Of a DNA stretch of 64,000 bases, positions 3,008 to 60,757 are shown piece by piece. The translations under genes were made by a program, and so were the position numbers. The DNA comes from Gallionella sp. Lineage in GTDB: Bacteria; Pseudomonadota; Gammaproteobacteria; Burkholderiales; Gallionellaceae. Location: contig JAQTMZ010000004.1 in NCBI GenBank assembly GCA_028714075.1, positions 62,001-126,000 on the forward strand, read 5' to 3'. The stretch's first letter is position 1, and each line of letters starts with the position of its first letter. The notes beneath the pieces are model-generated. The model was not told the DNA's origin and did not search any database. It saw only the letters and a program-made list of their open reading frames with translations.

Positions 3008-3033
3008 GGGGCGCGATTTATCGCGCCCTTTTT
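3008..3033 (+). terminator. Terminator hairpin of the DMT transporter gene (repeat type)
   Basis: GGGCGCGA, TTTA, TCGCGCCC followed by TTTTTC: an 8-bp GC stem and a U-tract. The motif begins at the transporter's stop codon (GTAGGGGCG), the same arrangement as the repeat at the end of tldD. Confidence 0.8.
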
Positions 3034-3041
3034 CTAGCAAT

Positions 3042-3097
3042 GTAGCGTGCGCTGTGCGCGCGATTCCTGAATCAGGTCGTGCGCACAGCGTACGCTA
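3042..3097. repeat. Long hairpin between convergent genes, overlapping the glnE stop
   Basis: GTAGCGTGCGCTGTGCGC at about 3042-3059 pairs with GCGCACAGCGTACGCTAC at 3080-3097, with 17 of 18 positions complementary, and the loop holds a smaller GATTC/GAATC pair. The glnE stop codon (reverse-strand TAG, 3095-3097) is the outer end of the right arm. It probably acts as a bidirectional terminator between the convergent transporter gene and glnE. Confidence 0.75.
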
Positions 3098-5899
3098 CGC
3101 TGATCCGCCGAACAGTTCCGCCCACAATTCCCGGCTCGCGCGTGTGTCGATTTCTTCATGCGCTATGCGGCATGAAGACTGATTGTTGAGCCGCATACGG
3201 TGCTGGATCTGGCGCAGGTGGCGGTACAGGACGCGGGTCTGTTCGGCAAGATCGGGGCGGATCAAACCGAATTCAGCCGCCATTTTCAGCAATGCCAGGT
3301 TGCCGACATTGGCCGTCAGTTGCGGGTGTTGGTGGGCGTGGGCGAGCACGAGATATTGCACGATGAACTCGATGTCCACCATGCCGCCGCTGTCGTGTTT
3401 GATGTCGAATAATTCGGTGTTGTTGGGATGCCCGTCGCGCATTTTCTGGCGCATCGCGACGATCTCGTTGCGCAATACCGCCGGGTCGCGCTGCTGGCAA
3501 AGCACTTGCTGGCGGATGTCTTCAAACGCGGCGCCGACTGCGGCGTCACCGGCGCAGAAGCGGGCGCGCGTCAGCGCCTGATGTTCCCATACCCAGGCCT
3601 GGCTGCGCTGGTATTCGGCAAATGCCTCAATTGAGCTGACCAGCAAGCCGCTTGCGCCATTCGGGCGCAGGCGCAGGTCGGTTTCGTACAATCGCCCGGA
3701 TGACGTGTAGCTGCCCAGCAGCGAGTTGATGCGCTGGCCCAGCCGCGCATAGATCTCCTGCGCATCGGGATGGTCGTCGTCGTACAGGAAGATCAGATCG
3801 AGATCGGAGGCGTAGCCGAGCTCTTTGCCGCCCAGCTTGCCATACGCGATGATGGCAAACTTCGCGTCTTCGCGATGCTTTTTGCGCGCGCTGTCCCAGC
3901 ACAGCTTCAGCATGTGGCGCAGGATCATGTCGGCGAGATCGCTCAGGTGATCGCTGAGCTTTTCCAGCGGCAGCAGGCCTTGCAGATCCATCGCCAGCAG
4001 ATGGAATATCTGCTCCTGCTGCACATGGTGCAGCGCATCCATCCGGCGTTCCTCATCGCCGGCGCAATCGGCAAAGCGGTTTTGCAGGTCGAGATCGATT
4101 TGTGGCCATTGCGGCGGCTGGTAGATTTCGCGTGCATCCAGCAATTCGTCGAGCAGGGCCGGGTGTTGCGTCAGGTATTCGCCCGCCCAACTGCTGGCCG
4201 CGACCAGTGCGACCAAGCGTTGCATGGCTTGCGGGTATTCGGCGAGGAAGGCGAGATAAGCCGCGCGCCGGCTGATTGCTTCCAGCAAGGCCAGCAACCT
4301 GGACAGCGTCGCATCGGGATCGCCGTGTTGCGCGCTCAACGCGACGAATTGCGGGATCAATTTGTCCAGGCGTTGCCGGCTGAGGTCGGGCAATTGCCGG
4401 TAGCGGCTGCCGCCGCGCAATTGCTGCAGGCGTTGCGCGCTGTCGGCTGCAACGCGGTACCCGAGGCTTTCCAGATGCGCGCCCAATTCTTCGTCGCTAA
4501 CGCCTTCGTGCCAGAACTGCGCGTCGCTTGGCGCTTCTTCCTGTGCGCCGAAAATTTGCCCGAATTGCTGGCTGACCACCGCGCGATGGCGATCAAGCGG
4601 TTCCAGCAGCGCGGCGTAATCCGCGTAGCCCATGGCCTGCGCGATGGCGCTTTGATCTTCCGGCTTTTCCGGCAATTCCTGGGTCTGCTGGTCATCCAGA
4701 TATTGCAGGCGGTGTTCCAGGTTGCGCAGAAAAACATAGGCGGCATCCAGTTCCTCCACTGCCTGCGCGGACAATTGGCCGTTTTTTGCGAGCAGTTGCA
4801 GCGTTTCCCGGGTGGGGCGGATGCGCAGTTGGGCATCGCGTCCGCCGCGTATCAGCTGGAATACCTGCGCGGTAAATTCGATCTCGCGTATGCCGCCCGG
4901 GCCGAGCTTGATGTTGTTGAGCCGGTCGCGGCGCTGCACTTCCTGGCGGATTTGCGCGTGCAGCTTGCGCATCGAATCGATCGCGCCGAAGTCGAGGTAT
5001 TTGCGGAACACGAACGGCTGCGTCAGGCGCGCCAATTCGTTAATATAAAGCTCGCGCAGCGATTCGTTTGTCCTCTCTCCCGCTTGCGGGAGAGAGTTAG
5101 AGAGAGGGGTTTTATGCGGGAGAGGGTTGTTCGCAGGAGCTATCACGCGCGCCTTGATCCATGCATAGCGTTCCCATTCGCGCCCCTGGCTGACCAGATA
5201 TTCTTCCAGCGCGGCGAAGCTGGCCACCAGCGGGCCGCTGTCGCCGTAAGGGCGCAGGCGCATGTCCACGCGGAACACATAGCCGTCGGCGGTGAGTTCA
5301 TTGATGAGATTGATCAGGCGGCGGCCCAGCCGGGTAAAGAATTCATGGTTGCTCAGTTTGCGCGGGCCATCGGTTTCGCCGTCTTCCGGGTAGACGAAAA
5401 TCAAATCGATATCGGATGAAACATTCAGTTCGCAACCACCCAGCTTACCCATGCCGATGATGAGCAACTCCTGCGGCGTTGCGCTCGCTTCGCCCAGCGG
5501 GGTGCCGAATTGCGCCTGCAAGGCTTGCATCAGGCAGGCCTGAGCCTGTTGCACGCATATTTCCGCCAGCGCGGTCATCGCCTGCATCACTTCGTTCAAG
5601 TCGGCCAGCCCGTTGAGGTCGCGCAGGATCAGCTTGATCATCACCTGCTTGCGCAATCTGCGCACGGCGCGCGCCAAGGATATTTCGTCGTTCAGGTCAA
5701 GCCCGGACTGTTGCAGCAATGCCAACATTTCCGCGCGGTTGCATGGTGTGGTGTGATTTTTCTGCAACCAATCCAGCAGCGGGTGGTCTACTTCCAGCAG
5801 GTGTCTGGCATAACGGCTGCAATGCAGCGTTTTTTGCAGCATGTCATCGAAGGTTGTGGGCAGCGAGTCTGTTGCAGTATTCATGGGGGAGCGCTTCAA
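3095..5899 (-). CDS. glnE: Bifunctional glutamine synthetase adenylyltransferase/deadenylylase
   Basis: Adds and removes AMP on glutamine synthetase in response to PII, setting nitrogen assimilation activity in the cytoplasm. At 934 residues it matches the family length. Two nucleotidyltransferase domains are visible: N-terminal GMGKLGGCELNVSSDIDLIF (about residues 148-167) and C-terminal YGKLGGKELGYASDLDLIF (about 685-703), each with the G-x-D-x-D metal-binding core. The start is MKRSPMNT, or the ATG five codons in. Between conserved WIKARV and QPFVFRKYLDFG (roughly residues 245-285) lies an unusual segment, NNPLPHKTPLSNSLPQAGER, encoded by a palindromic repeat. The gene is monocistronic and divergent from yhdP. 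Confidence 0.95.
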   Translation of the reverse strand: MKRSPMNTATDSLPTTFDDMLQKTLHCSRYARHLLEVDHPLLDWLQKNHTTPCNRAEMLALLQQSGLDLNDEISLARAVRRLRKQVMIKLILRDLNGLADLNEVMQAMTALAEICVQQAQACLMQALQAQFGTPLGEASATPQELLIIGMGKLGGCELNVSSDIDLIFVYPEDGETDGPRKLSNHEFFTRLGRRLINLINELTADGYVFRVDMRLRPYGDSGPLVASFAALEEYLVSQGREWERYAWIKARVIAPANNPLPHKTPLSNSLPQAGERTNESLRELYINELARLTQPFVFRKYLDFGAIDSMRKLHAQIRQEVQRRDRLNNIKLGPGGIREIEFTAQVFQLIRGGRDAQLRIRPTRETLQLLAKNGQLSAQAVEELDAAYVFLRNLEHRLQYLDDQQTQELPEKPEDQSAIAQAMGYADYAALLEPLDRHRAVVSQQFGQIFGAQEEAPSDAQFWHEGVSDEELGAHLESLGYRVAADSAQRLQQLRGGSRYRQLPDLSRQRLDKLIPQFVALSAQHGDPDATLSRLLALLEAISRRAAYLAFLAEYPQAMQRLVALVAASSWAGEYLTQHPALLDELLDAREIYQPPQWPQIDLDLQNRFADCAGDEERRMDALHHVQQEQIFHLLAMDLQGLLPLEKLSDHLSDLADMILRHMLKLCWDSARKKHREDAKFAIIAYGKLGGKELGYASDLDLIFLYDDDHPDAQEIYARLGQRINSLLGSYTSSGRLYETDLRLRPNGASGLLVSSIEAFAEYQRSQAWVWEHQALTRARFCAGDAAVGAAFEDIRQQVLCQQRDPAVLRNEIVAMRQKMRDGHPNNTELFDIKHDSGGMVDIEFIVQYLVLAHAHQHPQLTANVGNLALLKMAAEFGLIRPDLAEQTRVLYRHLRQIQHRMRLNNQSSCRIAHEEIDTRASRELWAELFGGSA
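5051..5133. repeat. Palindromic repeat (CTCTCCCGCTTGCGGGAGAG family) inside glnE
   Basis: A perfect 24-bp palindrome lies at 5073-5096. The preceding 19 nt (5052-5070, TCGCGCAGCGATTCGTTTG) recur exactly at 50381-50399, and a diverged reverse copy is at 47863-47880. A second half-site, GCGGGAGAGGGTT, follows at about 5116-5128. The element keeps the glnE frame open. Confidence 0.85.
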
Positions 5900-6000
5900 G
5901 TTAGAATGCGCATTGTCTTATGATTGGAAGTTGGCCGCTAGTCGCTAATTAAATTAACCGGCGGCTGGCAACTAGCGCCCAGTGGCTAAATACTAAATTC

Positions 6001-9000
6001 ATGTTGAATTCTCTTCCCGTCCGCCTGCTTTGGCACAGTTTAAACTGGTTGACGCGACTCGCCATCGTCGCGTCGACAGCTATGGCTGTGCTGGTGGCGC
6101 TGACGATTATCGTGTTGCGCTATTGGCTGCTGCCGGATATAGAGCAGTATCACGGCCGGATCACCGCTTCACTGTCCAGCGCGATCGGTAACCCGGTCAC
6201 CATCGGCAAGATCGAAGGCGATTGGCAGGGTATTCAGCCGCACCTGAATTTCGGCGATGTGCGTATCCTGGACGAGCAACGCCAGGCCGCTCTGGTGCTG
6301 CCCGGCATAAGCGCAAGCGTATCGTGGATGTCCCTGCTCACCGCCGAACTGCGGCTGGCCAGCCTGGAAATCGACGGCCCGGAGCTGCTGATACGCCGTG
6401 ATGCGCAGGGAAAAGTTTACATCGGCGGTGTGGCTATCTCCAACTCCACGCAAAGCGGCGATAACGACCTGGCCAATTGGCTGTTGCACCAGTCGCGCAT
6501 GGTGGTGCGCAATGCCATTATTATTTGGCTCGATGAGCAGCGCGCCGCCCCGCCTTTGATGTTGCAGAATGTGGAGTTGCGCATCGAGAGCCTGCTCAGC
6601 CATCACCGTTTTGCCATGCGTGCCGTGCCGCCGGGCGAGCTGGCGACCCCCCTGGATGTGCGCGGCGATTTTTACGGCAAAAGTTTTGATGCACTGGACG
6701 AGTGGCATGGGCAACTGTACACGCAGCTCGATCACACCGATATCAGCGCATGGCGCTCTTGGCTGGATTTGCCCAAGGAGTTCAGCCGCGGCCGCGGCGC
6801 ATTGCGCGGCTGGCTTGGCCTGGATGGCGGCAGAGTGACGCAGGTCTCCGCCGACCTGGTGTTGCGCGATGTGGTGACCAAGCTGGCCGATGATGCGCCG
6901 GAAATGGTGTTGCTCAATTTGCGCGGACGTTTCATATGGAAAGATTTGGCGGGGGGCATGGAAATTTCCACCCGGAATCTGGCGATGCGCTTGCAGAACG
7001 GCATCGAATTACAGCCCACAGATTTTTATTTTCGTACCGTGGCGGCAAGCAATGTGCGATCCGCCAGCAGCGAGATACGTGCCAACCAGTTGCAATTGGA
7101 AAGCCTCGCCGGGCTGGCCAATTTCCTGCCGCTGGAGGCAGGCCTGCGCGCCCAGCTGGATGCCTATGCGCCAAGGGGAAGGGTATCCAACCTGAACGCG
7201 CAATGGCAGGGTTCTCTCGAAAAACCGGACAGCTACAAAATCAAGGGAAAGTTTGAAAATCTTGCCGTGCGCAAAGTTGGCGGGATGCCGGGTTTTTCCG
7301 GGTTGTCGGTGGATGTGGATGGCAGCGAGGCGAGCGGCAAGCTGGACATTAAATCCCAGCAATTGTCTGTGGATGCGCCGGGAGTGATGCGCGAACCGTT
7401 ATTTTTCGCCACCTTGACCGGACAAGCCGAGTGGCAGCACAAACGCGGGGAATTATTGGTTGACGTCGATAATGTTGCCGTCGCCAACGACGATCTGGCG
7501 GGTAATCTGCATGGCAGTTACCAGACGCAGGCCGGCACGCCGGGCGTGCTGGATTTGACGGTAGCCCTCACACGCGGGGATGTCAGGCGCGCCGCCCGTT
7601 ATACCCCGCTGGTCGCGGTGGACAAGGGAGCCAGCGACTGGCTGCATGACGCAATATTGGCGGGACACACACAGGACTTGCGCATCCGCATCAAGGGTAA
7701 TCTCGGCGATTTTCCGATGGACGGCACGAAAGACGGGGTGTTTGAAATTACCGGGCACGCGCAGGATGTGGTAGTGGAATTCGACAAGGATTGGCCGCGC
7801 ATTGAAAATATTTCCGGTGAATTGCTGATACGCGGCAACAAGCTGGAAGTGAAGTCGCCATCTGCAAGGACGCTGGGGGCGCGTTTGCAGAACTTCACCG
7901 TTACCCTGCCGGACATGAAGAGCGATGACTTGCCGCTGGAGGTAAAGGGTGAGGCGGCAGGAGCGAGCAATTTATTTCTGCAATACATCCAGCAAAGCCC
8001 GGTGCGCGGCTATATAGACGGTTTTACCGACGGCATGAGCGCCAGCGGTGACGGGCATCTGGATTTGTTTGTACATGTTCCGCTGCTGGGCAACAAGCCG
8101 GTAAAAGTGTCGGGTGTCCTGCGCGTGCAGGACAACGATATCGATTTGGGCGAAGGTGTGCCGTTGTTGCGCAAGACGCGCGGCGAGCTGGCGTTCACCG
8201 AATCGAACATGAAGGCCAGTAATGTCGCGGCGGAGATACTGGGCGGGCCAGCCAGCATGAGTGTGCAGACTGGCGATGGCGGAACGGTGCATGCCACCGT
8301 GAAAGGGTTCAGCAATCTCGATATTTTGCGCAGCAGCCAACCACACCCGTTGCTGAATTATTTGCGCGGCGGTGCGGCATGGGATGCCGACATCAACGTG
8401 ACCAAAAAATCCGCACAGGTGGTTATCAATTCCAATTTGCAGGGTATCAGTTCCAGCTTGCCGCAGCCCTTCGCCAAACCGGCTGGGGATGTCCTACCGC
8501 TGCGCCTGGAAAAGAAAAATGTCACCGACGGGCAGGATGTCATTACCGCCCAATTGGGCAAACTGCTCCGCGCACGGCTGGTGCGGCGCGAAGAAGACGG
8601 TGCGATGGTCGTCAAGCGTGGGACGTTAAGATTCGGCGAGCAGGGCAGACCGACGGACAGTCAAGGGGCGCAAGAGCGCAGGGAGGGCGTGCGGATAGTG
8701 GGCAGCTTGCCGGTGTTGTCAATACAGGGATGGGAGGGTTTGACAGGCGATTCCGGAGGCCAAAGCCCGGCGCTGCCGCTTACCACCATAAACCTGTCCA
8801 TCGGGAAACTCACCGGCTATGGGCAGGTCATCAACGAGATACATATCGATGCTGCCAAACGCGGCGACGGAATGGCAGCGCAGTTGTCCAGCAATGTGTT
8901 GGGCGGTGAATTGGTATGGCAGCCGCACGGTTTTGATACGGGCGGCAAACTCATCGCGCGCTTGCGTAATCTGCAACTGCTAAACGAAGAGCAGCCCGCC

Positions 9001-10806: not shown

Positions 10807-12267
10807 ATGATAAATACCTCACAGCAAACCTTCGACACATTATTCGCCACCGCCCAGCAATCGCTGCTGACTCCGCATTCCATCGAGACACGCAACATCG
10901 AACAGGTGTTTGCCAGCATGATGGCGCACCGCCTCGATTACGCCGATTTGTATTTCCAGTACAGCCGCGCCGAGAGCTGGTCGCTGGAGGAGGGTATCGT
11001 CAAATCCGGCAGCTTCAGCATCGATCAGGGGGTCGGGGTGCGCGCGGTGAGCGGCGAGAAAACCGCTTTCGCCTATTCCGACGACATCAGCATGAACGCG
11101 CTGGAAAGTGCGGCGCAGGCCACGCGCGCGATTGCCAAGCAGGGTGGCGAACAGACCGTACCGATACTGCATCACGGTTCGCGGCGTGAAATCTATTTGC
11201 CGCAGGATCCGATTGCCAGCATCAAGGATGCGGAAAAAGTCGCGCTGCTGGAGCGGCTCGAAGGCTATGCGCGCGCGCTCGACCCGCGTGTGGTGCAGGT
11301 GATGGCGGGGCTGGCGGGCGAATATGAAGTGGTGATGGTGGCGCGCAGCGACGGCCTGATGAATGCCGACATTCGCCCACTGGTGCGCCTGTCGCTGCAG
11401 GTCATCATCGAGAGCAACGGCAAGCGCGAACAAGGTTCGGCGGGCGGCGGCGGACGCTTCGATTACGGCTATTTCGACGACGCGATGCTGCGTAAGTATG
11501 CCGCACAGGCGGTGCATCAGGCGGTGATCAACCTGGATGCCGCACCGGCCCCGGCGGGCAACATGACCGTGGTGCTGGGCAACGGCTGGCCGGGCATTTT
11601 GCTGCACGAAGCGATCGGACACGGCCTGGAAGGCGACTTCAACCGCAAGGGCAGCTCGGCATTTTCCGGCCGCATCGGCGAGCGCGTCGCGGCAGAGGGT
11701 GTGACGGTGGTGGATGACGGCACGCTGGCGAGCCGGCGCGGCTCGTTGCAGATGGACGACGAGGGTAATCCCACGCAATGCACCACACTGATCGAGAACG
11801 GCATCCTCAAAGGCTATTTGCAGGACTCGCTCAACGCGCGGCTGATGGGCGTGCCGGTCACCGGCAATGCGCGGCGCGAATCCTACGCGCACCTGCCGAT
11901 GCCGCGCATGACCAACACCTATATGCTCAACGGCAACAAAGACCCGCAGGAAATCATCGCCTCGGTGAAGCACGGCCTGTACGCGGTGAATTTCGGCGGC
12001 GGGCAAGTGGATATCACCAGCGGCAAATTCGTGTTCTCCACCACCGAAGCCTACCTGATCGAAGACGGCAAGATCACCCATCCGGTCAAAGGCGCGACGC
12101 TGATCGGCAACGGCCCCGACGTGCTGACGCGCATCTCGATGATCGGCAACGACATGGCGCTCGACCCCGGCGTCGGTACCTGCGGCAAGGAAGGCCAGAG
12201 CGTGCCGGTCGGCGTGGGGCAGCCGACGGTGCGAATCGATAGGCTGACGGTGGGCGGGACGGCGTAG
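10807..12267 (+). CDS. tldD: Metalloprotease subunit TldD
   Basis: TldD pairs with TldE (PmbA) to form a cytoplasmic zinc protease that trims unfolded peptides and matures some modified peptides; in E. coli it processes microcin B17 and the antitoxin CcdA. The protein has 486 residues, near the usual 480. The metal-binding HExxxH is at about residue 267 ([12 protein letters not shown]), and a later conserved Cys-containing segment [18 protein letters not shown] is at the C-terminus. No tldE is in this window. The TAG stop sits within a palindromic repeat that doubles as the likely terminator. Confidence 0.95.
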
Positions 12268-12292
12268 GGGCGTATGGCAATACGCCCTTTCA
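12264..12292 (+). terminator. tldD stop codon plus terminator hairpin (repeat type)
   Basis: GGGCGTA, TGGCAA, TACGCCC then TTTC. The 24 nt from 12264 to 12287 are identical to 57485-57508 inside miaA. The stop codon TAG (12265-12267) is part of the repeat. Confidence 0.75.
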
Positions 12293-15136: not shown

Positions 15137-15138
15137 TC

Positions 15139-16782: not shown

Positions 16783-19212
16783 ATGAAATTTTCCGAGAAT
16801 TGGTTAAGAACCTGGGTGAATCCAGAGATGCCCAGCGAGGCGTTAGGGCATTTGCTGACCATGGCCGGGCTGGAAGTCGAAGCACTGGAAGCCGTCGCTC
16901 CCGCATTCAATAACGTGGTGGTGGCCGAAGTGCTGGAAGTGGTCAAACATCCCAATGCGGATCGCTTGAACGTGTGCCAGGTGAATGTCGGCGAGGCACA
17001 GCCGCTGACCATCGTCTGCGGCGCGGCAAATGTGGCTGTCGGCGTGAAAGTGCCGTGCGCGCGCATCGGCGCGCTGCTGCCCCCAAATAGCGAGAATGAA
17101 AAAGGTTTCGCCATCAAGCAGGCCAAGGTGCGCAACGTCGAGTCGTTCGGCATGTTGTGCTCCGCAAAAGAACTGGGGCTGGCCGAAGAAAGCCAAGGCC
17201 TGTGGCTGCTGCCGAGCGATGCGCCGGTGGGCAAGACGCTGCGCGAGTATCTGGAACTGGACGACAAATTGTTCACGCTGAAACTCACGCCGAACCGCAG
17301 CGATTGCTCCGGGATGCTCGGCATTGCACGCGAAGTCGCGGCGCTGACCGGCAGCGCGCTCAAGCCGTTGGATCTTCAAATCCAGCCGGTCATCCTTTCC
17401 GAACAATTGCCGGTGCATGTGGCCGATGCGCAGGCCTGCCCGCTGTATTGCGGTCGCCTGGTGCGCGGCGTGAACGCCGCCGCGCCTACACCGGCCTGGA
17501 TGCTGCGCCGTCTGGAGCGCAGCGGCCTGCGCGGTATCAGCGCGGTGGTGGACATCACCAACTACGTGATGCTGGAAATGGGCCAGCCGCTGCACGCCTT
17601 CGATCTGGCGCAACTAACGGGCGGTATCACGGTGCGCAGGGCGCGCAACGGTGAAGCGCTGACGCTGCTCAACGAACAGGCGGTGAAGCTCGACGAAGAA
17701 GTACTGGTCATCGCCGACGATGCGCGGGTACTGGCGCTGGCCGGTATCATGGGCGGGCAGGGCAGCGGCGTGGAAACTACTACCCAAGACGTGTTTGTGG
17801 AGAGCGCGTTTTTCCATCCCGATGCGATTGCCGGCAAGGCGCGCCGTTTCGGGTTGGCGACCGATTCTTCGTTCCGCTTCGAGCGCGGCGTGGATTTTGC
17901 GGCGACGCGCCAAGCGCTGGAGCGCGCGACACAATTGCTGCTGGAAATTTGCGGCGGCAGCGCCGGGGCAATCAGCGAAGTGCGCAACCAGTTACCTGAA
18001 CGGGTGGCAATCACATTGCGCCGTTCGCGTGTCGCGCGGGTGCTCGGTATCGCGCTGGACAATATCCAGATTGCTGATCTTTTGACGCGCCTGCAATTCG
18101 AATTCACCGCGAATAGCCCTCTCCCCAACCCTCTCCCGCAAGCGGGAGAGGGGGCAAACGTGAAGGGCGATGTTGATTTCTGTGTCACACCGCCGAGCTT
18201 TCGTTTCGATCTGTCCATCGAGGCAGACCTGATCGAGGAGCTGGCGCGCCTGCATGGCTATGACAACATCCCCGCACTCGCCCCGCAAGCTGCGCTGACC
18301 ATACTGCCGTACAGCGAACTGCAGCGCCCGCTGGCGCGCATCCAGCAGATGCTTGTTGCGCGCGGCTACCAGGAGATCGTCAGCTATGCGTTTGTCGACG
18401 AGCAGGTTGAACGTGAATTGTGCGGCAACGATAAAGCGGTCGCGCTGCAAAACCCGATCGCCAGTAATCTGGCGGTGATGCGCAGCAGCCTGATCGGCGG
18501 GCTGGTGGGCGCGTTGCGCTTCAACCTGAACCGCAATCAGGCGCGCGTGCGCCTGTTCGAGGCCGGTGCATGTTTTGCCAGGGTAAATGACGAGTATGTG
18601 CAGAGCCAGCGACTATCTGGTTTGGCATATGGCGCGACTCAGCCGGAACAATGGGGCACAGCCGCCAAACCGGTCGATTTTTACGATGTGAAAGCGGATG
18701 TCGAGGCATTGTTCGCCCCGCAAGTCTTGCGTTTCGTTGCGGCAGTCCACCCGGCCTTGCATCCAGGGCGCTCCGCGCAGATTTTTTGCGGAGGGCAGAT
18801 GATCGGCTGGATCGGCGAACTGCACCCGCAGTGGCAGCAACAATACGACATGGTGCAGGCCGCCGTGTGGTTTGAAGTCGAACTCGGTGCGTTGCTTCAG
18901 ACGGCAGTGCCGCGCATGAGCGAAATTGCCAAATTCCTGCCGGTGCGACGCGATCTGGCGGTGCTGGTGGACGAGGCAGTTACTCTGCAGACCTTGCTGG
19001 ACGCCATGCAGCAGGCAGATGTGCCTTACGTGCAAGAAATTGCCCTGTTTGACGTGTATCGCGGCAAAGGTGTAGAGCAAGGCAAAAAAAGCCTTGCATT
19101 CCGTGTGTTATTACAAGATACTAAAAAAACGCTCACGGATTCTGAAATTGAATCAAGTATTGCGCTGTTGGTGGATGTGATGCAACAGCACGGTGCTCAG
19201 ATGCGCATGTAA
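16783..19212 (+). CDS. pheT: Phenylalanine-tRNA ligase beta subunit
   Basis: The beta subunit carries tRNA binding and editing. It has 809 residues, a little above the usual 790-800. In order: MKFSENWLRTWVNP start, EMAP-like tRNA-binding domain (about 40-150), B3/B4 editing domain (ISAVVDITNYVMLEMGQPLHAFD), B5, the catalytic-like domain (AVMRSSLIGGLVGALRFNLNRN) and a C-terminal anticodon-binding FDX domain. Residues about 445-462 (SPLPNPLPQAGEGANVKG) are an insertion encoded by a palindromic repeat, just before the conserved TPPSFRFDLSIEADLIEELA. It is followed after 9 nt by ihfA. Confidence 0.96.
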   Translation: MKFSENWLRTWVNPEMPSEALGHLLTMAGLEVEALEAVAPAFNNVVVAEVLEVVKHPNADRLNVCQVNVGEAQPLTIVCGAANVAVGVKVPCARIGALLPPNSENEKGFAIKQAKVRNVESFGMLCSAKELGLAEESQGLWLLPSDAPVGKTLREYLELDDKLFTLKLTPNRSDCSGMLGIAREVAALTGSALKPLDLQIQPVILSEQLPVHVADAQACPLYCGRLVRGVNAAAPTPAWMLRRLERSGLRGISAVVDITNYVMLEMGQPLHAFDLAQLTGGITVRRARNGEALTLLNEQAVKLDEEVLVIADDARVLALAGIMGGQGSGVETTTQDVFVESAFFHPDAIAGKARRFGLATDSSFRFERGVDFAATRQALERATQLLLEICGGSAGAISEVRNQLPERVAITLRRSRVARVLGIALDNIQIADLLTRLQFEFTANSPLPNPLPQAGEGANVKGDVDFCVTPPSFRFDLSIEADLIEELARLHGYDNIPALAPQAALTILPYSELQRPLARIQQMLVARGYQEIVSYAFVDEQVERELCGNDKAVALQNPIASNLAVMRSSLIGGLVGALRFNLNRNQARVRLFEAGACFARVNDEYVQSQRLSGLAYGATQPEQWGTAAKPVDFYDVKADVEALFAPQVLRFVAAVHPALHPGRSAQIFCGGQMIGWIGELHPQWQQQYDMVQAAVWFEVELGALLQTAVPRMSEIAKFLPVRRDLAVLVDEAVTLQTLLDAMQQADVPYVQEIALFDVYRGKGVEQGKKSLAFRVLLQDTKKTLTDSEIESSIALLVDVMQQHGAQMRM
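18117..18160. repeat. Palindromic repeat (CTCTCCCGC/GCGGGAGAG family) inside pheT
   Basis: A 20-bp palindrome lies at 18131-18150, preceded by CCCTCTCCCCAACC (18117-18130) and followed by GGGGCAAACG. The 14-nt left part is the exact reverse complement of 50484-50497, in front of ctaD. The frame is kept. Confidence 0.85.
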
Positions 19213-19941: not shown

Positions 19942-20703
19942 CTACCCCTGTAGCAGTACTCCATCCACCAGCCGCAAACAGCGCTGCATCCGCCCTGCCA
20001 GCTCGAGATCGTGGGTGACCACGATGAAGCTGGTGTTGAATTTCGTGTTGAGTTGCTGCATCAGTTCAAACAGGGCATGCGCGCTGCCGCGATCCAGATT
20101 TCCGGTGGGCTCGTCAGCCAGCACGCAAGCCGGTTCGGTCACCAGCGCGCGCGCCACGGCAACGCGCTGGCGTTCGCCGCCGGATAGCTCCGATGGCAAA
20201 TGCTGGATGCGCTGCGCCAGCCCTACCTGTTCCAGCATTGCGGCGGCGCGCGGTTTGGCCTCGGTGCTTTTCATGCCGCGAATAAACAGCGGCATCGCGA
20301 CATTTTCCAGCGCGGTAAATTCCGGCAGCAGATGATGGAACTGGTACACGAAGCCGAGCGCATGGTTGCGTAATTCGCCGCGCTGCACCTCGTTCATCTG
20401 CTGCACTTCCTGGCCGAGTATCTGCACGCTGCCGCCGCTGCCGCTGTCCAGCCCGCCGAGCAGGTGCAGCAACGTGCTTTTGCCGGAGCCGGACGCGCCG
20501 ACGATGGCGAGGCGTTCGCCGCGCTGTACGTCGAGGTCGATACCCTTGAGCACCGGCACATCCAGCTTGCCGATGACAAAAGTCTTGCGCAGGCCGCGGC
20601 AGGAAATGACCATACCTGTATCCTGCATTTTCGGGAGCGCGGGCGTCTCGCCCGCATGCGGACGGGGACGTCCGCGCTCCCATCCTGGATACTGTTTACT
20701 CAT
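19942..20703 (-). CDS. lolD: Lipoprotein-releasing ABC transporter ATPase LolD
   Basis: ATPase of the LolCDE complex, which extracts lipoproteins from the inner membrane for LolA. It has Walker A GASGSGKS, the Q-loop region [17 protein letters not shown], signature [15 protein letters not shown] and Walker [12 protein letters not shown]. The annotated start (20703) overlaps the lolC stop by 8 nt (ATGAGTAA), giving a 253-residue protein with an extra N-terminus, [17 protein letters not shown], that is encoded by a palindromic repeat. An internal ATG ([10 protein letters not shown], about residue 31) has AGGA 7 nt upstream and gives the usual family length. Which start is used is unclear. Confidence 0.92.
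20633..20681. repeat. 49-bp inverted repeat at the lolC-lolD junction
   Basis: GGGAGCGCGGGCGTC and GACGTCCGCGCTCCC pair at 14 of 15 positions around CTCGCCCGCATGCGGACGGG. It is in frame with the lolD start that overlaps lolC. Confidence 0.8.
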
Positions 20704-25631: not shown

Positions 25632-27087
25632 TTTCACCGAGCGGGTCGCGGCACAGATCGCGCCGTTGCTTCCCGCGCACAGCTCAATCCTGATCGGCCT
25701 GAGCGGCGGGGTGGATTCGGTGGTGCTGCTGCATCTGCTGCACAAACTCGCCCCCCGGTTTTCCTGGCAGCTCTCCGCACTGCATGTCCATCACGGCATC
25801 AGCCCGAATGCCGATGCATGGGCGAAATTTTGCGCCGATCTCTGCGCGCGCCACCTTGTTTCCCTGCATATCGAACATGTGGACATCGCGCCGTTGCGCG
25901 CGCATGGCATCGAGGCGGCGGCGCGCAAGCTGCGCCATGCGGCGTTTGCCGGGCAGGACTGCGATTTTGTGGCACTGGCGCACCATGCCGACGATCAGGC
26001 GGAAACCCTGCTGCTGCAACTGTTGCGCGGCGCGGGGACACGCGGCGCGAGCGCCATGCCTGTCCTGAGCATGTCGAAGCGGCCTGTCCCGAGCCTCCTG
26101 AGGTATCGAAGGGCGGAGCGGCCGTTGCCGGCCGGGCGCACGGCAGCCCCCAATTTTGTGCGCCCGCTATTGCACTGCTCGCGGCAGGAAATTCTCGACT
26201 ATGCCGCAGCGCATCAGTTGCACTGGATCGAGGATGAAAGCAACGCCGACGACAGCTATCCGCGCAACTTTTTGCGGCATCGGGTGATGCCGTTGCTGAA
26301 TGAAAAATTTCCCGCTTGCCGCAACACCCTGGCGCGCAGCGCGCAGCATTTCGCCGAGGCAAGTGAACTGCTCGATGACCTGGCGCGACTGGATGCCTAT
26401 GATTTGCTCCCCTCTCCCGCTTGCGGGGGAGGGGCTGGGGGAGAGGGCGGCGAGTCATGCTTGGAAGTATCGCGCCTGCAATCCCTCTCCCAACCCCGTG
26501 CAAAGAATCTGCTGCGCTATTTTTTGTACAGCAGCGGGGCACCGATGCCGCAAGCCGTGCAACTGGACGATATGCTGCAACAATTATGCAACGCGCGGCG
26601 AGATGCGGCGGTATGTATCGGATATGGCGGTGGCGACTGGCAGGTGCGCCGCTATCGGGGCAGGGTGTATGCGCTGCGCGCACCGGGCGGCTTCGACCGG
26701 AACCTTATCTTGTCGTGGCAGGGCGAGGCGGAGCTGGACTGGCCTGCGTTGAATATGCGACTGCGCTTCGATCCCACACAAGCATCCGGCATCAGCCTGA
26801 AAAAATTGCAGCGCGCGCCGGTAACACTGCGCCTGCGGCGCGGCGGCGAAACCCTGCGCCCCCACCCGAATGCCGCGACGCGCACCCTGAAGAACCTGCT
26901 GCAAGAACAGCATATCCCGCCCTGGCAACGCGACCGCCTGCCGCTGCTGTATTGCGGCGAAGAGCTGGTGTGCGTGCCGGGTGTGGCGGTTGCGGCGGAG
27001 TATCAGGCTGCGGCGCAAGAGGAGGGAGTGCAGTTATCGGTAACTGACTACAACAGCCATGCCCCGTTGATAACGGGAACGAATTGA
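25600..27087 (+). CDS. tilS: tRNA(Ile)-lysidine synthase
   Basis: Modifies C34 of tRNA-Ile(CAU) to lysidine so it reads AUA, an essential step in most bacteria. The PP-loop [15 protein letters not shown] is near residue 33, and the catalytic domain continues through [23 protein letters not shown]-terminal domains carry RFDPT and the [22 protein letters not shown] signature. It is 495 residues, longer than the usual 430-460, because of two repeat-coded insertions: about residues 153-184 ([20 protein letters not shown]) and about 270-285 ([17 protein letters not shown]). The ATG at 25600 lies within accA. The infC AUA start makes AUA decoding in this organism of extra interest. Confidence 0.93.
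26056..26118. repeat. CCTGTCC(C/T)GAGC-family repeat inside tilS
   Basis: Two degenerate tandem units of a CCTGTCCTGAGC-CTGTCGAAG-type repeat (26059-26082 and 26083-26112). A third copy is intergenic at 60555-60577 (CCTGTCCTGAGCCTGTCGAA). The tilS frame stays open. Confidence 0.75.
26409..26446. repeat. Palindromic repeat (CTCTCCCGC/GCGGG family) inside tilS
   Basis: CCCCTCTCCCGC, TT, GCGGGGGAGGGG (26409-26434), followed by CTGGGGGAGAGGG. It is the same family as in glnE and pheT and is read in frame. Confidence 0.8.
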
Positions 27088-47701: not shown

Positions 47702-47893
47702 CGTGCATAGAAAGTAGCCACTCTTCATGATGAAACTCCCCATGCCCGTTCCCTCTCCTCAATCCTCTCCCGAAGAAAAGCCCCCCTCTCCAACTTTCCC
47801 CCGCAAGCGGGAGAAAGGGCAAACGAGAAAGGCAATCTTCAATTCCTGCGGGCGAAGAGGCGAACGAATCGCTATGCGAGTTTTACTTTAACC
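47702..47893. repeat. Repeat-filled gap between holB and tatD
   Basis: 192 bp with no gene. It contains CTTTCCCCCGC, AA, GCGGGAGAAAG (47794-47817), preceded by degenerate CCCTCTCC half-sites, and GAACGAATCGCTATGCGA (47863-47880), the diverged reverse complement of the flank seen in glnE (5052-5070) and before ctaD (50381-50399). Confidence 0.75.
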
Positions 47894-50380: not shown

Positions 50381-50497
50381 TCGCGCAGCGATTCGTTTGC
50401 TCCCTCGCCCGCTTGCGGGATAACCAGCGACTTGGCTGCGGTCGCTTGCAGCCTAGTCGAATGGCTAGTTGTTTCATCCAGAGGGTTGGGGAGAGGG
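50381..50497. repeat. Repeat-derived ctaC-ctaD spacer containing the ctaD ribosome-binding site
   Basis: It begins with TCGCGCAGCGATTCGTTTG (identical to 5052-5070 in glnE), continues with a partial palindrome CCCGCTTGCGGG (50408-50419), and ends with GGTTGGGGAGAGGG (50484-50497), the reverse complement of 18117-18130 in pheT. AGAGGG is 7 nt from the ctaD ATG, the best Shine-Dalgarno available. Confidence 0.75.
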
Positions 50498-54894: not shown

Positions 54895-54913
54895 ATCGTT
54901 TTTTGAATCAAGG

Positions 54914-55089
54914 GAGCCTCTAAAAATTCAGAGTTCGCCCAAATGCAAGGCGCGGGAAAAGGGGTAAGCAGGCAAGCCGCAAAGCGGATGCTCGCAAAAA
55001 TTTAGCAGCGCCGCATATGTTTTATATGTAAGCAAGAAATTTTTTACGCAACGCAGCAGTTGGGATGAAATCTGGATTTTTAGAGGCTC
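54914..55089. mobile_element. 176-bp MITE-like element with 19-bp terminal inverted repeats
   Basis: GAGCCTCTAAAAATTCAGA (54914-54932) and TCTGGATTTTTAGAGGCTC (55071-55089) are complementary at 18 of 19 positions. The interior is AT-rich (TTTTATATGTAAGCAAGAAA) and has no ORF. No obvious target-site duplication. It ends 2 nt before the ugd stop codon and could act as its terminator. Confidence 0.65.
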
Positions 55090-55091
55090 TC

Positions 55092-56417
55092 TCAGCTTTC
55101 CCGCCCGATCCCGTGATACTCGATGCCTTGCGCAGCAATGCTGGCCGGCTCGAACAGATTCCTCCCATCGAAAATCACCGGCTGTTTCAAAAGTGACTTG
55201 ATGACATTGAAGTCCGGGCTCTTGAAGGCTTTCCACTCCGTGACGATGACCAGCGCATCGGCTTCCTGTAGCGCATCCTTAGGGTTGTCGGCATAGCTCA
55301 GGTCGGCGCGCTTGCCGTAAATGTGCTGGGTTTCTTTCATCGCCGCCGGGTCATAGGCGGTGACGGTCGCACCGCGCGCCCATAACCCTTCCATCACCAC
55401 GCGGCTGGTCGCTTCGCGCATGTCATCGGTACCCGGCTTGAATGCCAGCCCCCACAGGGCGAAGTGTTTACCCTTCAGGTTTTCGCCGAAGCGTTGGGTG
55501 ATTTTTTGCAGCAGCACGGATTTCTGAGCGTCGTTCACTTCTTCCACCGCTTGCAGCACCTTCAATGGCAGACCGTATTCCTCGCCGGTGCGTTGCAACG
55601 CGCGGATGTCCTTGGGGAAGCACGAGCCGCCATAGCCGCAGCCCGCATACAAGAAGTGGTAGCCGATGCGCTGGTCGGAGCCGATACCCTTGCGCACATG
55701 CTCGATGTCGGCGCCGACCTTTTCCGCCAAGTTAGCCAGTTCGTTCATGAACGAGATGCGCGTCGCGAGCATCGCATTGGCGGCATATTTGGTCAGCTCG
55801 GCGGAGCGGATGTCCATTACCATCAGGCGGTCGTGATTGCGCTGAAACGGCGCGTACATGTCGCGCATCACCTTGATCGCCTGCTCATCCTCGGCGCCGA
55901 TGACGATGCGATCCGGGCGGTTGAAGTCGTCGATGGCCGCACCCTCCTTGAGGAATTCCGGGTTGGATACCACGCTGAAACCGGTCTTGATCCCGCGTTT
56001 GGTCAACTCTTCCTGCACCGCCTGCCTGACCTTGTCGGCGGTGCCGACCGGCACGGTAGATTTGTCGACGATCACCTTGTATTCGGTCATGGCGCGGCCA
56101 ATGGCACGGGCGGCGGCGATGACGTATTGCAGGTCGGCCGAGCCATCCTCGCCGGAAGGTGTGCCCACCGCAATCATCTGCACCAGCCCGTGCGCCACGC
56201 TTTCGGCCACATCGGTGGTGAAGCGCAGGCGACCAGCAGCGACATTGCTCTTGATGACGTCTTCCAGGCCGGGTTCGTAGATCGGCACGCCGCCGTTGTT
56301 GAGAATATCGATCTTCTTCGGATCGACATCCAGGCAAATGACATCATTGCCCAGTTCGGCGAGACATGCGCCGGACACCAATCCGACATAGCCGGAACCG
56401 ATTACCGTGATTTTCAT
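55092..56417 (-). CDS. ugd: UDP-glucose 6-dehydrogenase
   Basis: Oxidises UDP-glucose twice to UDP-glucuronate for polysaccharide or lipid A-related sugars. It has 441 residues. The NAD site [20 protein letters not shown] is at the start, with [27 protein letters not shown] and the catalytic Cys in [15 protein letters not shown] (about residue 260). The C-terminal domain has [17 protein letters not shown]. It is not in a visible polysaccharide cluster. On its 3' side is the MITE-like element. Confidence 0.97.
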
Positions 56418-57054: not shown

Positions 57055-58086
57055 CTAAATGCTTTCGGCGATAGTATCGAACACCGTCTGCGCCAGATCG
57101 GGCGCAAGGCAATCCAGTTCGACGTTGTCCGGCGTGGAGCGCAGCCAGGTGAGCTGGCGCTTCGCCAGTTGCCGCGTCGCGGCGAGGCCGGTTTCCAGCA
57201 GTTGCGCCGCATCGATTTCGCCTTCGATGAACTGCCATGCCTGGCGGTAGCCGACGCAGCGCATCGAGGGCAGGTTGGGATGCAGCGGGTATTTGTTGCG
57301 CAGCGCGCGCAGTTCATCCACCAGGCCGAATTCGAGCATCGCCCTGAAGCGCGCGGTGATGCGGGCGTGGAGTTGCGCGCGGTCGGAGGGGGCGAGGGCG
57401 ATGGAGAGAATGCGGTAGGGGAGAGCATCTTCGGCTATGTGGTGCGTACCGAGAGCGGGTGTATTGCCATACGCCTGCGCCTCCGTAGGGGCGTATGGCA
57501 ATACGCCCTTGGGCATGATATTCGCGGGCAGGGGCTGTTTAATCAGCGCGGACATCGGCGATCCGGTGATACGGTAGATTTCCATCGCGCGCTGGATGCG
57601 CTGCGTGTCGTTGGGGGCGAGGCGCGCGGCGGTTTCCGCATCTACCTGGGCGAGCTGCCGGTGCAGGTGCCGGATGCCGTGCTGCGCGATCTCGGCATCG
57701 AGCGCGGCGCGCACCGCCGGGTCGGATGGCGGCAGGGCGCTGAGGCCTTCGCGCAGCGCCTTGAAATACAGCATGGTGCCGCCGACCAGCAGCGGAATCC
57801 TGCCGCGTGCCGTGATGTCCGCCATCAGGCGCAGCGCATCGTGGCGGAACGCGGCGGCGGAATAGGCTTCGGTGGGGTCGATGATGTCGATCAGGTGGTG
57901 CGGCGCGCGGGCGAGGGTGGCGGCGTCCGGCTTGGCGGTGCCGATGTCCATGTCGCGGTACACCAGCGCCGAATCCACGCTGATGAGTTCCACCGGCAGG
58001 CGCTGCGCCAGCTCCACCGCGACCCCGGTCTTGCCGCTGGCGGTGGGTCCCATCAGGAAAATGGCAGGCGGGAATTTCGGGTTCAT
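57055..58086 (-). CDS. miaA: tRNA dimethylallyltransferase
   Basis: Adds a dimethylallyl group to A37 of tRNAs reading UNN codons. It has 343 residues, about 30 more than usual. P-loop [20 protein letters not shown], then [36 protein letters not shown] and [11 protein letters not shown] are canonical. The extra length is at about residues 185-212 ([18 protein letters not shown] and flanks) between SALIKQP and [13 protein letters not shown], and is encoded by an inverted repeat also found at the end of tldD. The C-terminal [17 protein letters not shown] is intact. Confidence 0.95.
57457..57508. repeat. GGGGCGTATGGCAATACGCC-family inverted repeat inside miaA
   Basis: Arms at 57457-57475 and 57489-57507 are complementary at 18 of 19 positions, around TGCGCCTCCGTAG. 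57485-57508 equals 12264-12287 at the tldD end. The miaA frame is maintained through both arms. Confidence 0.85.
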
Positions 58087-58348
58087 GACTTCATGTTCTT
58101 TATATCATTAATAACGCAATGCATTGTAAGTAAACGACATCGAATAAATTATTAGTGGTGTATGAACCGCCACATCAGGGGGTAGTTAATGGGGAATTCT
58201 ACATGGTTTCACCTAGCTGCATCCGTTGGTGCGAATACGCGGTTGCAACTACCGCAGTGGTATGTTTTTGGGAAACGGGCACTTGAAAATATCCAAATCA
58301 GCTCCATCTGCTCGTTCATTCTTTGTGAACTTAACTGAAGGGGTTTGT

Positions 58349-60253
58349 ATGACTGAGAGCACTGCCGCTAATCGTGAAACGATGGGATTTCAAACGGAAG
58401 TTAAGCAGCTTCTGCAATTGATGATCCATTCGCTGTATTCCAACCGCGAGATTTTCCTGCGCGAACTGGTATCCAACGCGTCGGATGCCTGCGACAAATT
58501 GCGCTTCGAGGCGCTGCACAACGCCGCGCTGTTCGAAAACGATTCGGATTTGAAAATCCATATCAGTTACGACGAGGGCGCCAAGACGCTGACGATCAGC
58601 GATAACGGCATCGGCATGAGCCGCGACGAGGTCATCGGTAATCTGGGCACGATCGCCAAATCGGGTACCCAGGAATTTTTTGCCAAAATGACTGGGGATC
58701 AGCAGAAGGATGCGAACCTGATCGGGCAGTTCGGCGTCGGCTTCTATTCCTCATTTATTGTCGCCGACAAAGTCGTGGTCATCACGCGCCGCGCCGGAGA
58801 GAAGGCCGACCAGGGCGTGCGCTGGGAATCGGATGGCGGCGGGGAATTCTCCATCGAAATGCTGGACAGGCCCGCGCGCGGCACGGAAATCACCTTGCAT
58901 CTGCGCGAAGACCAGGACGACCTGCTCAGCGGCCACAAGCTGCGCTCCATCATCCACAAGTATTCGGATCACATCGTCCAGCCCATCCTGATGAAAAAAG
59001 AGGAGTGGGTGGAGGGCAAGCAGGTTATTACCGATGAAGTTGAAACGGTCAACCAGGCTTCCGCGCTTTGGGCGCGTTCCAAGAACGAGATTTCCGAAGA
59101 CGAATACAAGGCGTTCTACAAGCATGTCGGGCACGACTACGAAGACCCGCTGGCGTGGGCGCATGCCCGCGTGGAAGGGTATCAGGAATACACCCAACTG
59201 CTTTATATTCCCGCACGCGCGCCGTTGGATATGTGGCACCGCGATGCGCGCCACGGCATCAAGCTCTACGTGCGCCGCGTGTTCATCATGGATGACGCCA
59301 AACAGCTATTGCCGATGTACTTGCGCTTCGTGCGCGGCGTGGTTGATTCCAGCAACCTGCCGCTGAACGTGTCGCGCGAAATCCTCCAGGAATCGAAGGA
59401 CATCGAAGCGATTCGCGCCGGTTGCACCAAGAAAGTGCTCGGCATGCTCGAAGACATGGCGGCCAACGACAAGGAGAAATACGCCAAGTTCTGGGGCGAA
59501 TTCGGTTTGGTGCTGAAAGAGGGAGTGGGTGAGGATTTTGCCCACAAGGATAGAATTGCCGCCTTGCTACGCTTCGCTTCGACCCATACGGATAGCGATG
59601 CGAAAACCGTGTCGCTGGCCGATTACATCGGGCGCATGAAGGAGGGGCAGGACAAGATTTACTACATCACCGCCGAAACTTTCAATGCCGCAAAGAATAG
59701 CCCGCATCTGGAAGTGTTCCGCAAGAAGGGCATCGAAGTGCTGTTGCTGTCCGAACGCGTGGACGAGTGGGTGGTGGGCTCTTTGACCGAGTTCGACGGC
59801 AAGCAACTGGCCTCCGTCGCCAAAGGCGGGCTTGATCTGGGCAAACTGGAAGACGCAGCCGAGAAACAGGAACAGGAGAAACAGGCCAGCGAGCACAAGG
59901 ATTTGACCGAAAAAATAAAGGCGAGCCTTGCAAAACGCGTCAAGGAAGTCCGGGTGACCCACCGTCTGACCGATTCACCCGCCTGCCTGGTGGCCGACGA
60001 ACATGACATCGGCGGAAACATGGCGCGTATGCTCAAGGCCGCCGGGCAAAAGGCACCCCCTACCAGCCCTATTCTGGAGATCAACCCGAACCATCCGGTG
60101 GTGATGCGCTTGAAGGAAGAGGAGAAGCACTTCGATGATTGGGCGGCGGTGCTGTTCGATCAGGCATTGCTGGCAGAAGGCGGACAACTGGACGACCCGG
60201 CCGGTTTTGTTAAACGGGTCAATCACCTGATGCTCGAAATGCGCGCGGGCTGA
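58349..60253 (+). CDS. htpG: Molecular chaperone HtpG (Hsp90)
   Basis: A dimeric ATP-dependent chaperone. It has 634 residues from the ATG at 58349 ([20 protein letters not shown]), with GAAGGGG 6 nt upstream; an in-frame GTG-region start at 58226 is not family-like. The GHKL ATPase domain has [34 protein letters not shown] and [15 protein letters not shown]. The middle domain carries [15 protein letters not shown] with the catalytic Arg, and the C-terminal dimerisation domain ends normally. It is monocistronic. Confidence 0.97.
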
Positions 60254-60757
60254 TAGATTCGCCAGCTTCTTTCATTTTTCAAATATGCCTCCAAACCATC
60301 CTCAGCCCAAGTGGCGTGGGCGCTCCTCCCCTCTGATAAGCCTGTATTGAGATTCTTGTCGAAGTGGGGGAGGGGTTTGCTTTTGGCTGAAGGCATCGCC
60401 ACGCTTGGCTTACAGCTTTAACCCCTCCCAGCCTCCCCTTGTCAGGTGAGGAACGGTTCAGTTCTCCCCCTGACAAGGGGGAGTTAGAGGGGGTTTTGAG
60501 CCAATTCCGCCTCATACACCCTAAAAAACGCTGTTTGGATTTGCAGGAGCGGGTGCCTGTCCTGAGCCTGTCGAAGCGGCCCGCGAAATACCCGGTCGCG
60601 GGCATGGCCCGCTCCTACAAAATGGTTCTCCACCCCCCCAATTTTAAACAAACACCGACAAGCATACTTCATGGAAATCGGGATAGAATCGGGCTTGCAC
60701 GAAGCGGCCCAATAGCTGTTCAATTATTCAATATCCAATTTTTTCAAGAGACTACGC
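60254..60757. repeat. 504-bp gene-free region dense in palindromic repeats
   Basis: Three structures are visible: CCCCTTGTCAGG pairing with CCTGACAAGGGG in a hairpin at about 60432-60483; an element at 60545-60616 with AGGAGCGGG/CCCGCTCCT ends; and inside it CCTGTCCTGAGCCTGTCGAA (60555-60574), the unit also found in tilS. A TTTGCAGG/CTACAAAA frame surrounds the second. No ORF is convincing. Confidence 0.75.

What the first reader, a model, noticed from the sequence alone, without database searches (positions are those of the whole stretch)
3008..60616. Palindromic repeats recur inside conserved enzymes, at stop codons and at ribosome-binding sites
At least five repeat types are mixed into genes: in frame within glnE, pheT, tilS (two) and miaA, at the N-terminus of lolD, as stop codon plus terminator at the DMT gene and tldD, overlapping the glnE stop, and as the likely ribosome-binding site of ctaD. 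Every intragenic copy keeps its frame, and three of the hosts (pheT, tilS, glnE) are core genes; miaA is widely conserved. The Rickettsia palindromic element is the known precedent for in-frame repeat insertion. Having several unrelated families do the same in a betaproteobacterium would be new to me.
Basis: partly seen in the sequence, partly recalled or inferred. Interest (0 to 1): 0.85.

Follow-up and report, generated by a model that had tools for sequence, protein, structure and literature searches.

The report
Palindromic repeats lodged inside core enzymes
In a Gallionella-like bacterium, short palindromic repeats sit in frame inside dozens of genes, many of them for core enzymes, and are missing from many relatives' copies of those genes; they are likely selfish DNA that survives only where the protein has a loop that tolerates extra residues.

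Summary
Five intragenic copies in the window (glnE, pheT, tilS twice, miaA) are in-frame insertions: many orthologues have shorter segments there. The lolD copy is probably upstream of the true start. At tldD and glnE, a GTAG-tagged repeat supplies the TAG stop.

Genome-wide, the main family (F1) has at least 90 places. My gene caller puts 52 inside one open gene, and algC was added by hand. Hosts include murB, murC, murE, murG, mutS, mutL, purL, priA, gatB, folC and coaBC. In a 380-kb sample, seven other families are intragenic in 6 of 56 copies, F1 in 13 of 25.

The most striking result is re-use of sites: the same loops of MurC, PurL, MutS, PheT, MiaA and TilS carry different inserts in different genomes. 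By their peptides, the MiaA and TilS loops hold unrelated repeat families.

The phenomenon is in print: Rickettsia palindromic elements, and intragenic REPs in several species (PMC3733652). So this is a new variant of a known kind. I did not find this scale in a free-living bacterium, the F1 family, or loops shared by many families in the papers searched. Mobility and retention of the peptides are untested.

The parts
5048..5122 (-). In-frame insert in glnE (aa 260-284); F1 hairpin 5073-5096
18115..18165 (+). In-frame F1 insert in pheT (about aa 445-461, SPLPNPLPQAGEGANVKG)
   Evidence: turn between two strands in the model
26059..26133 (+). In-frame insert in tilS, site 1 (aa 159-178), F6-type repeat
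26408..26454 (+). In-frame F1 insert in tilS, site 2 (aa 273-285)
57436..57531 (-). In-frame insert in miaA (aa 186-217): a pair of Fm (GTAG-type) REPs
   Evidence: low-confidence coil in the model
20633..20681 (.). Palindrome upstream of the likely lolD start (20613, minus strand); not intragenic
3002..3032 (+). DMT stop codon (TAG, 3003-3005) overlapping by one base a GTAG (3005-3008) with hairpin and T run
3042..3098 (.). F9 REP pair; its TAG (3095-3097, minus strand) is the glnE stop
12264..12287 (+). Fm REP whose TAG (12265-12267) is the tldD stop
47777..47826 (+). Intergenic F1 copy upstream of a TatD-family gene
50394..50497 (-). F1 copy with nested F12 (50418-50479) upstream of ctaD; its tail GGGGAGAGGG (50488-50497) is the likely ribosome-binding site
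1731..1861 (.). F4 (CGTC-tagged) REP pair, intergenic
54911..55092 (.). F5 MITE-like element with inverted ends, abutting the end of the UDP-glucose dehydrogenase gene
60435..60480 (.). F3 palindrome, intergenic
60556..60619 (.). F6 and F8 palindromes, intergenic; F8 also flanks a RAYT-like gene elsewhere in the genome

Best explanation
Several unrelated families of short palindromic repeats, likely mobile and some probably moved by RAYT-type transposases, lie in frame inside conserved enzymes of this Gallionella-like bacterium, and they probably persist only where they landed in a protein loop that tolerates extra residues. Shown by calls: the copies are insertions relative to orthologues; inserts in relatives fall at the same places with different sequences, and in MiaA and TilS with peptides of different families; F1 is intragenic far more often than the other families sampled; one family (F8) flanks a RAYT-like gene on both sides. 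Inferred: insertion happens at many places, out-of-frame or structurally harmful copies are removed by purifying selection, and each enzyme keeps one or a few loops that accept insertions. F1 may be tolerated more often because its full-length consensus has no stop in two sense frames and one antisense frame and only a terminal stop in the third sense frame, and because it encodes Pro/Gly/Ser-rich linker-like peptides. Not shown: that the elements move today, what moves F1, and that the peptides stay in the mature proteins.
For: Insertion against orthologues. Census: 52 of 90 F1 places inside one called gene, 45 of those 52 in genes of at least 250 aa, plus algC by hand. 33 of 40 further hosts scanned match an NCBIfam model at E 1e-30, not all above the curated cut-off, besides glnE, pheT and tilS. 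Site re-use: MiaA, 97 of 120 homologues parsed, 57 empty (7 aa), 39 with 16-68 aa, five peptide motifs from about four families; no other internal site with inserts of 6 aa or more was seen in columns filled in at most 30% of rows. TilS site 1, 112 of 121 parsed, 96 longer than 12 aa, up to 143 aa, eight repeat motifs. MurC 3 of 15 and PurL 5 of 15 genes with unlike inserts at one site. PheT 6 of 31, one of them a Sulfuricella (30 of the 80 loci were aligned). Structure: PheT insert is a low-confidence coil between strands 440-443 and 465-469. Frame: of 36 F1 copies with both flanks matching relatives' readings, 26 lie within one relative gene (25 called, plus algC) and none shifts its frame. 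RAYT flanked by F8. F1 frame openness.
Against: No target-site duplication or exact element end could be fixed. Only two Y1_Tnp hits exist and neither is beside F1, Fm or F9, so the mover of those families is unknown. The three F1 sense frames are not used evenly (18, 17 and 5). F1 48-mers are only slightly more open than random genome 48-mers (about 4.7 against 4.25 of 6 frames), and F6, equally open, had only 5 copies. In 4 of 26 hosts the relative has unlike sequence of similar length, and 4 more lie at a terminus. The MiaA model is weak (mean 63) and 89 of 343 residues, conserved stretches included, fall below 50, so low confidence there is not specific to the insert. Rarer inserts occur elsewhere: a 16-aa and two 8-aa ones in pheT after residue 138, and blocks in TilS after residues 95, 324 and 370.
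Confidence: 0.75

Rival explanations
1. Targeted insertion: the elements prefer existing palindromes or particular DNA at these sites, so re-use of a loop reflects target choice and nesting rather than survival.
For: F12 sits inside F1 in the ctaD leader of the window and in glnE of G008; the same peptide interrupts the F1 peptide in a miaA homologue. Some TilS loops hold tandem copies of one motif. The two MutS inserts at residue 456 share motifs.
Against: Many inserts at a re-used loop are single and unlike each other, and empty orthologues show no repeat peptide there. The PheT site is used in a separate genus.
Confidence: 0.2
2. Functional recruitment: the peptides are kept because they do something useful, such as a linker or a binding segment.
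For: Related inserts at one site in several genomes (glnE, miaA).
Against: Unlike sequences, in different frames and lengths, occupy the same loop, and many orthologues lack any. No shared function of the hosts was tested.
Confidence: 0.1
3. Artefact of metagenome assembly or binning.
For: The genome is a draft in 27 contigs with 2.25% contamination; a 9.8-kb contig carries a second pheT.
Against: Inserts at the same sites occur in separate public records and contigs.
Confidence: 0.03

Closest known systems
Rickettsia palindromic elements (RPE)
   Same: Palindromic repeats of several families in frame inside conserved genes; peptides reported in solvent-exposed regions (PMC3767692 and PMC10969869, passages read).
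   Different: A free-living betaproteobacterium and, by name and host, other repeats (RPE sequences were not compared). Here peptides of unlike families share one loop; the R. japonica paper leaned to a common origin for RPE-4, -6 and -7 at shared sites without excluding hotspots.
Intragenic GTAG- and CGTC-tagged REPs (PMC3733652)
   Same: Fm, F8 and F9 carry GTAG and a hairpin, F4 carries CGTC; GTAG giving TAG stops; REPs inside ORFs, many in repair genes; recB in two Xanthomonas hit at about the same site.
   Different: The F1 consensus has neither tag, though a minority of F1 copies have GTAG at the outer end of the tail, so part of F1 may belong here.
REPIN/RAYT system
   Same: F8 occurs partly in inverted pairs and flanks a RAYT-like gene on both sides.
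   Different: No RAYT neighbours F1, Fm or F9; the other RAYT-like gene is flanked by a further GTAG repeat.
MITEs
   Same: F5 (182 nt) has inverted ends; F12 has short inverted ends.
   Different: No target-site duplication established; F12 is found in frame within coding F1 copies.

Membership tests
GTAG-tagged REP | GTAG tetranucleotide next to a hairpin | tested here: met
   Fm, F8 and F9
GTAG-tagged REP | Cognate RAYT flanked by the repeat | tested here: inconclusive
   Met for F8; only two Y1_Tnp hits in the genome, none beside Fm or F9
GTAG/CGTC REP, for F1 | GTAG or CGTC tag at one end | tested here: inconclusive
   Neither in the consensus of 20 copies. GTAG within 25 nt of the hairpin in 30 of 90 copies against 13% of random places; CGTC in 15 of 90 against 27%. 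11 of the GTAG cases lie at the outer end of the CCCTCTCCC tail (my count of offsets); others lie in the long tail or are scattered
CGTC-tagged REP, for F4 | CGTC tag and palindrome | tested here: met
   CGTCATTCCGG...; one window copy reads CGTCGTTCCGG
Rickettsia palindromic element | Palindromic repeat in frame inside conserved ORFs | tested here: met
Rickettsia palindromic element | Sequence kinship with RPE families | not tested
   no RPE sequence was compared; the ATGAC motif of RPE-4/6/7 is not enriched at F1 (4 of 90)
Rickettsia palindromic element | Peptide kept in the expressed protein | not testable with these tools
   needs proteomics
MITE, for F1 | Target-site duplication | tested here: inconclusive
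   25 pairwise rows gave no clear duplication; relatives are too divergent
Rfam RNA family | Match above gathering score | tested here: not met
   only three tRNAs in the window

The most novel reading that the evidence does not exclude
Core enzymes of Gallionella and its kin have a small set of permissive loops that work as landing pads shared by many unrelated palindromic mobile elements, which land, nest and replace one another there and so keep supplying new protein segments. One of them, F1, is a palindrome shaped to be translatable in most frames, a transposable element adapted to live inside genes.
Probability: 0.3. Interest if true: 0.82.

Novelty: new variant of a known kind. Interest (0 to 1): 0.63.

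Why it matters
It gives a free-living, widely sampled genus in which insertion of palindromic, probably selfish DNA into core enzymes can be followed across many genomes. It bears on the question raised for Rickettsia (PMC3767692): whether different palindromes at one site reflect a hotspot or a common origin. The sites found are natural maps of where MurC, MutS, PurL, MiaA, TilS or PheT tolerate extra residues, and the repeats offer a measurable route by which non-coding mobile DNA becomes protein.

Tried and rejected
lolD as an intragenic case was dropped. C2:30811, which looked like a gene broken out of frame, proved to match a relative's stop-to-stop reading whose left part is not the called gene. 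C4:168613 was likewise set aside. C8:16085 and C4:195312 also matched one relative reading on both sides, but on the strand opposite to the called genes, and were set aside on that ground alone. C4:196799 was called intergenic but is an in-frame insert after codon 5 of a phosphomannomutase-like gene (function and the name algC recalled, from no call); it is counted by hand as the 53rd. Two of 27 intragenic copies with both flanks matched did not match one relative reading and were not looked into.

Limits of the census: only 150 of 1270 first-look candidates were scored, so 90 is a lower bound; I merged the 135 strand hits by hand. Six of the 50 listed exact-core places are not among the 90, the ctaD copy included; eight more of its 58 were not listed. 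Seven of the 52 hosts' copies lie in ORFs of 186 aa or less and six at a terminus. Of the 13 intragenic F1 copies in the 380-kb sample, one is a weak match (6 mismatches) and two are in ORFs of 120-126 aa. In one search, two rows at C4:59640/59714, where the relative is longer, were dropped from the count.

Rfam gave no repeat match. A fuzzy regular-expression census timed out and was replaced by a mismatch scan. MiaA and TilS motif classes are my own peptide patterns; 11 of 39 long MiaA loops and 28 of 96 long TilS loops were left unclassed, though several look F1-like. A pattern for TilS site 2 failed (119 of 121 unparsed).

Papers: full-text search for the peptide NPLPQAGEG found none. Search for F1 DNA strings found 22 papers; the 20 listed are on other subjects by title. 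Gallionella with palindromic and repeat listed three papers, not opened. Other searches. Ogata 2002 (PMC186582) is not held and I saw nothing of it. Passages only were read of PMC10969869 and PMC3767692; of PMC3733652 passages and section 15.

Full report
What was checked. The window is contig C4:62001-126000 of a 2.83-Mb draft genome in 27 contigs. The nearest named pheT records are Gallionella, Gallionellales or Nitrosomonadales metagenome bins, so I call the organism Gallionella-like. Scans of 380 kb of this genome (C4:1-200000 and C3:1-180000) with eight repeat patterns gave 25 F1, 12 Fm, 9 F8, 6 F9, 4 F4, 15 F5, 5 F6 and 2 F3 copies, and none in one block-shuffled control. With a shorter pattern for Fm, 15 copies were found.

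The five inserts in four genes. Protein searches in 21 genomes and alignments show the inserts as extra segments. pheT: about 17 aa between FEFTA and the next strand. miaA: 32 aa, a pair of Fm repeats. tilS: two segments. glnE: 25 aa, also present in G007 and G008, which carry a further segment beside it (G007) or inside it (G008). That segment in G008 is F12, a 63-nt imperfect palindrome with ends GGATAA/TTATCC set inside the F1 hairpin. F12 also lies inside the F1 copy upstream of ctaD in the window.

Genome census. A covariance model of F1 (20 copies) gave 135 strand hits at E 1e-3 in the whole genome, with only 150 of 1270 first-look candidates scored; I merged them to 90 places. Gene calls came from a simple codon-usage caller that I wrote, so starts are approximate. 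52 places lie inside one called gene and 38 between genes. 45 of the 52 are in genes of at least 250 aa. There are 47 distinct host ORFs. Of 40 hosts scanned beside glnE, pheT and tilS, 33 match an NCBIfam model at E 1e-30; four short ORFs were not scanned. Named hosts include gatB, murB, murC, murE, murG, mutS, mutL, purL, priA, folC, coaBC, lysA, aroA-cmk, sucB, lnt, a FadE-type acyl-CoA dehydrogenase and an AddA-like helicase (below the curated cut-off). The called coding share of the sample is 80-88%, so 52 of 90 is still fewer than random placement would give. In the 380-kb sample F1 is intragenic in 13 of 25 copies and the other families in 6 of 56 (Fisher p 1.2e-4). Three of the 13 are weak or in short ORFs, and the six include both Fm repeats of the single miaA insert.

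Empty sites. Against the relatives' stretches I held (1.07 Mb of G007, parts of others), 26 of 47 hosts had one of their two best matches above 45% identity. By my reading of that output, 11 have a cleanly shorter relative (PheT, FadE, an RND permease, FolC, LysA, AnmK, a NuoD-like protein, YbbP, MutS, a FadB-like protein and one unnamed). Six have a repeat in the relative too, 4 lie at a terminus, 4 face unlike sequence, and 1 match was the repeat alone. DNA comparisons gave net differences divisible by three in 15 of 18 intragenic rows, which stand for 16 genes. Two exceptions are at gene ends, and for lysA the DNA figure is 46 while the protein alignment gives 15 aa. Of four intergenic insertions, three were not divisible by three. 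Of 36 copies with both flanks matching relatives' readings, 25 called intragenic copies and algC lie within one relative gene in frame; no gene broken by a shifted frame was found. If frames were not selected, one in three would be expected in frame.

Re-used loops. This is the strongest result. In 31 aligned pheT genes (30 of the 80 loci and the window), 6 have an insert of about 18 aa or more and all six are at the window's site, one of them in Sulfuricella at 61% identity; three others carry 8 or 16 aa of another kind after residue 138. In 120 MiaA homologues one internal site holds the inserts of 6 aa or more that the column test could see. There, 57 of 97 parsed loops are empty and 39 are long, with Fm in 14, F1-type peptides in several frames, F12 in 2 and another motif in 2. 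TilS site 1 ranges from 11 aa to 143 aa in 112 parsed proteins, with eight repeat motifs including the CGTC-type peptide FPRRRES in two; site 2 (after residue 255) has blocks in 22 rows, and a few rows have blocks elsewhere. These family calls rest on peptides, since the DNA of the homologues was not seen. MurC: this genome, G008 and G003 have unlike inserts at one site, and 12 of 15 genes have none. PurL: five of 15 genes have unlike inserts at one site; the one from outside the genus (L369) may not be a repeat. MutS: at residue 349 this genome, G008 and G001 differ; at residue 456 this genome and G009 carry inserts of different length that share motifs. The 19 MutS rows come from fewer genomes, because split loci were aligned apart. 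In MurC, PurL and MutS I did not assign each insert to a repeat family.

Structure. In the AlphaFold model of the window's PheT (29 sequences, mean pLDDT 81) residues 451-461 are below 50 and the insert is a coil joining strands 440-443 and 465-469; four other short segments are also below 50. In the MiaA model (50 of the 120 homologues) residues 184-223 are all below 50 without secondary structure, but the model is weak overall (63) and conserved segments are low too. This suggests, and does not prove, flexible loops.

Mobility. Two genes with the Y1_Tnp domain were found. One is flanked on both sides by F8 repeats, the usual REP-RAYT arrangement; the other by a further GTAG repeat. No such gene neighbours F1, Fm or F9. 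F1 is spread in the order: 60 of 150 genomes, 42 of 91 genera at E 1e-4, this genome included (at most 40 candidates scored per genome). Intragenic placement in those genomes was not examined.

What F1 is. The consensus shows no GTAG or CGTC tag. Yet GTAG lies within 25 nt of the hairpin in 30 of 90 copies against 13% of random places, and in 11 of them it sits at the outer end of the CCCTCTCCC tail (my count). So part of F1 may be a GTAG-type REP, and I leave its membership open. Its full-length consensus has no stop in two sense frames, only a terminal stop in the third, and is open in one of three antisense frames. 40 of 52 intragenic copies are in the sense direction, near the three in four that this would give. 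The peptides are rich in Pro, Gly and Ser. But over the 48-nt core F1 is only slightly more open than random genome DNA, so peptide character or element abundance may matter as much.

What is known. PMC10969869 (passages read) treats Rickettsia elements as the outstanding case and calls a similar process elsewhere conceivable. PMC3733652 (section 15 and passages read) shows that REPs lie inside ORFs in several species, that GTAG REPs supply stop codons, and that N-terminal cases are often mis-annotated starts. PMC3767692 (passages read) describes Rickettsia inserts at shared, solvent-exposed sites, leans to a common origin and does not exclude hotspots. So the phenomenon is known in kind. I did not find F1, or unrelated families sharing one loop on this scale, in the searches listed under Tried and rejected; supplements and most subscription papers were not searched.

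Verdict. The likely mechanism is insertion of selfish palindromes followed by selection for frame and loop tolerance. The fresh part is the shared landing loops and the scale.

Noticed in passing
G000:C23:6281-8632 (L125): A second pheT, 89% identical and without the insert, on a 9.8-kb contig; likely contamination of the bin by a relative.
   Followed up: partly
window 50418-50479: F12, an imperfect palindrome with GGATAA/TTATCC-type ends, nested in an F1 copy before ctaD; also nested in F1 in glnE of G008, and its peptide inside the F1 peptide of a MiaA homologue (P0020).
   Followed up: partly
window 54911-55092: F5, a 182-nt MITE-like element with inverted ends, touches the end of the UDP-glucose dehydrogenase gene; 15 end matches in 380 kb, none wholly inside a gene, four overlapping a gene end.
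   Followed up: partly
L199 4138-4464; L198 2692-2910: Two RAYT-like genes flanked by REPs, one by F8 and one by a further GTAG family.
   Followed up: partly
G000:C3:127773-138585: Four cell-wall genes (murE, murG, murC, murB) within about 10 kb each carry an F1 insert, with another F1 copy just downstream.
   Followed up: partly
MutS, MutL, PriA and AddA-like hosts: Several repair or replication genes are among the hosts, as reported for REPs in PMC3733652; enrichment was not tested.
   Followed up: no
TilS homologue P0227: The TilS loop between the AMP and RPLL motifs reaches 143 aa, apparently several repeats stacked together.
   Followed up: no
window pheT aa 103-108: The window's pheT has six further residues (NSENEKG region) that the same-genus orthologues lack; no repeat family recognised.
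   Followed up: no
F1 copies in G000: GTAG occurs near the F1 hairpin about 2.5 times as often as at random places, and a sub-type with a TGCA loop starts with CTACCCTCTCCC; F1 may be several families.
   Followed up: partly
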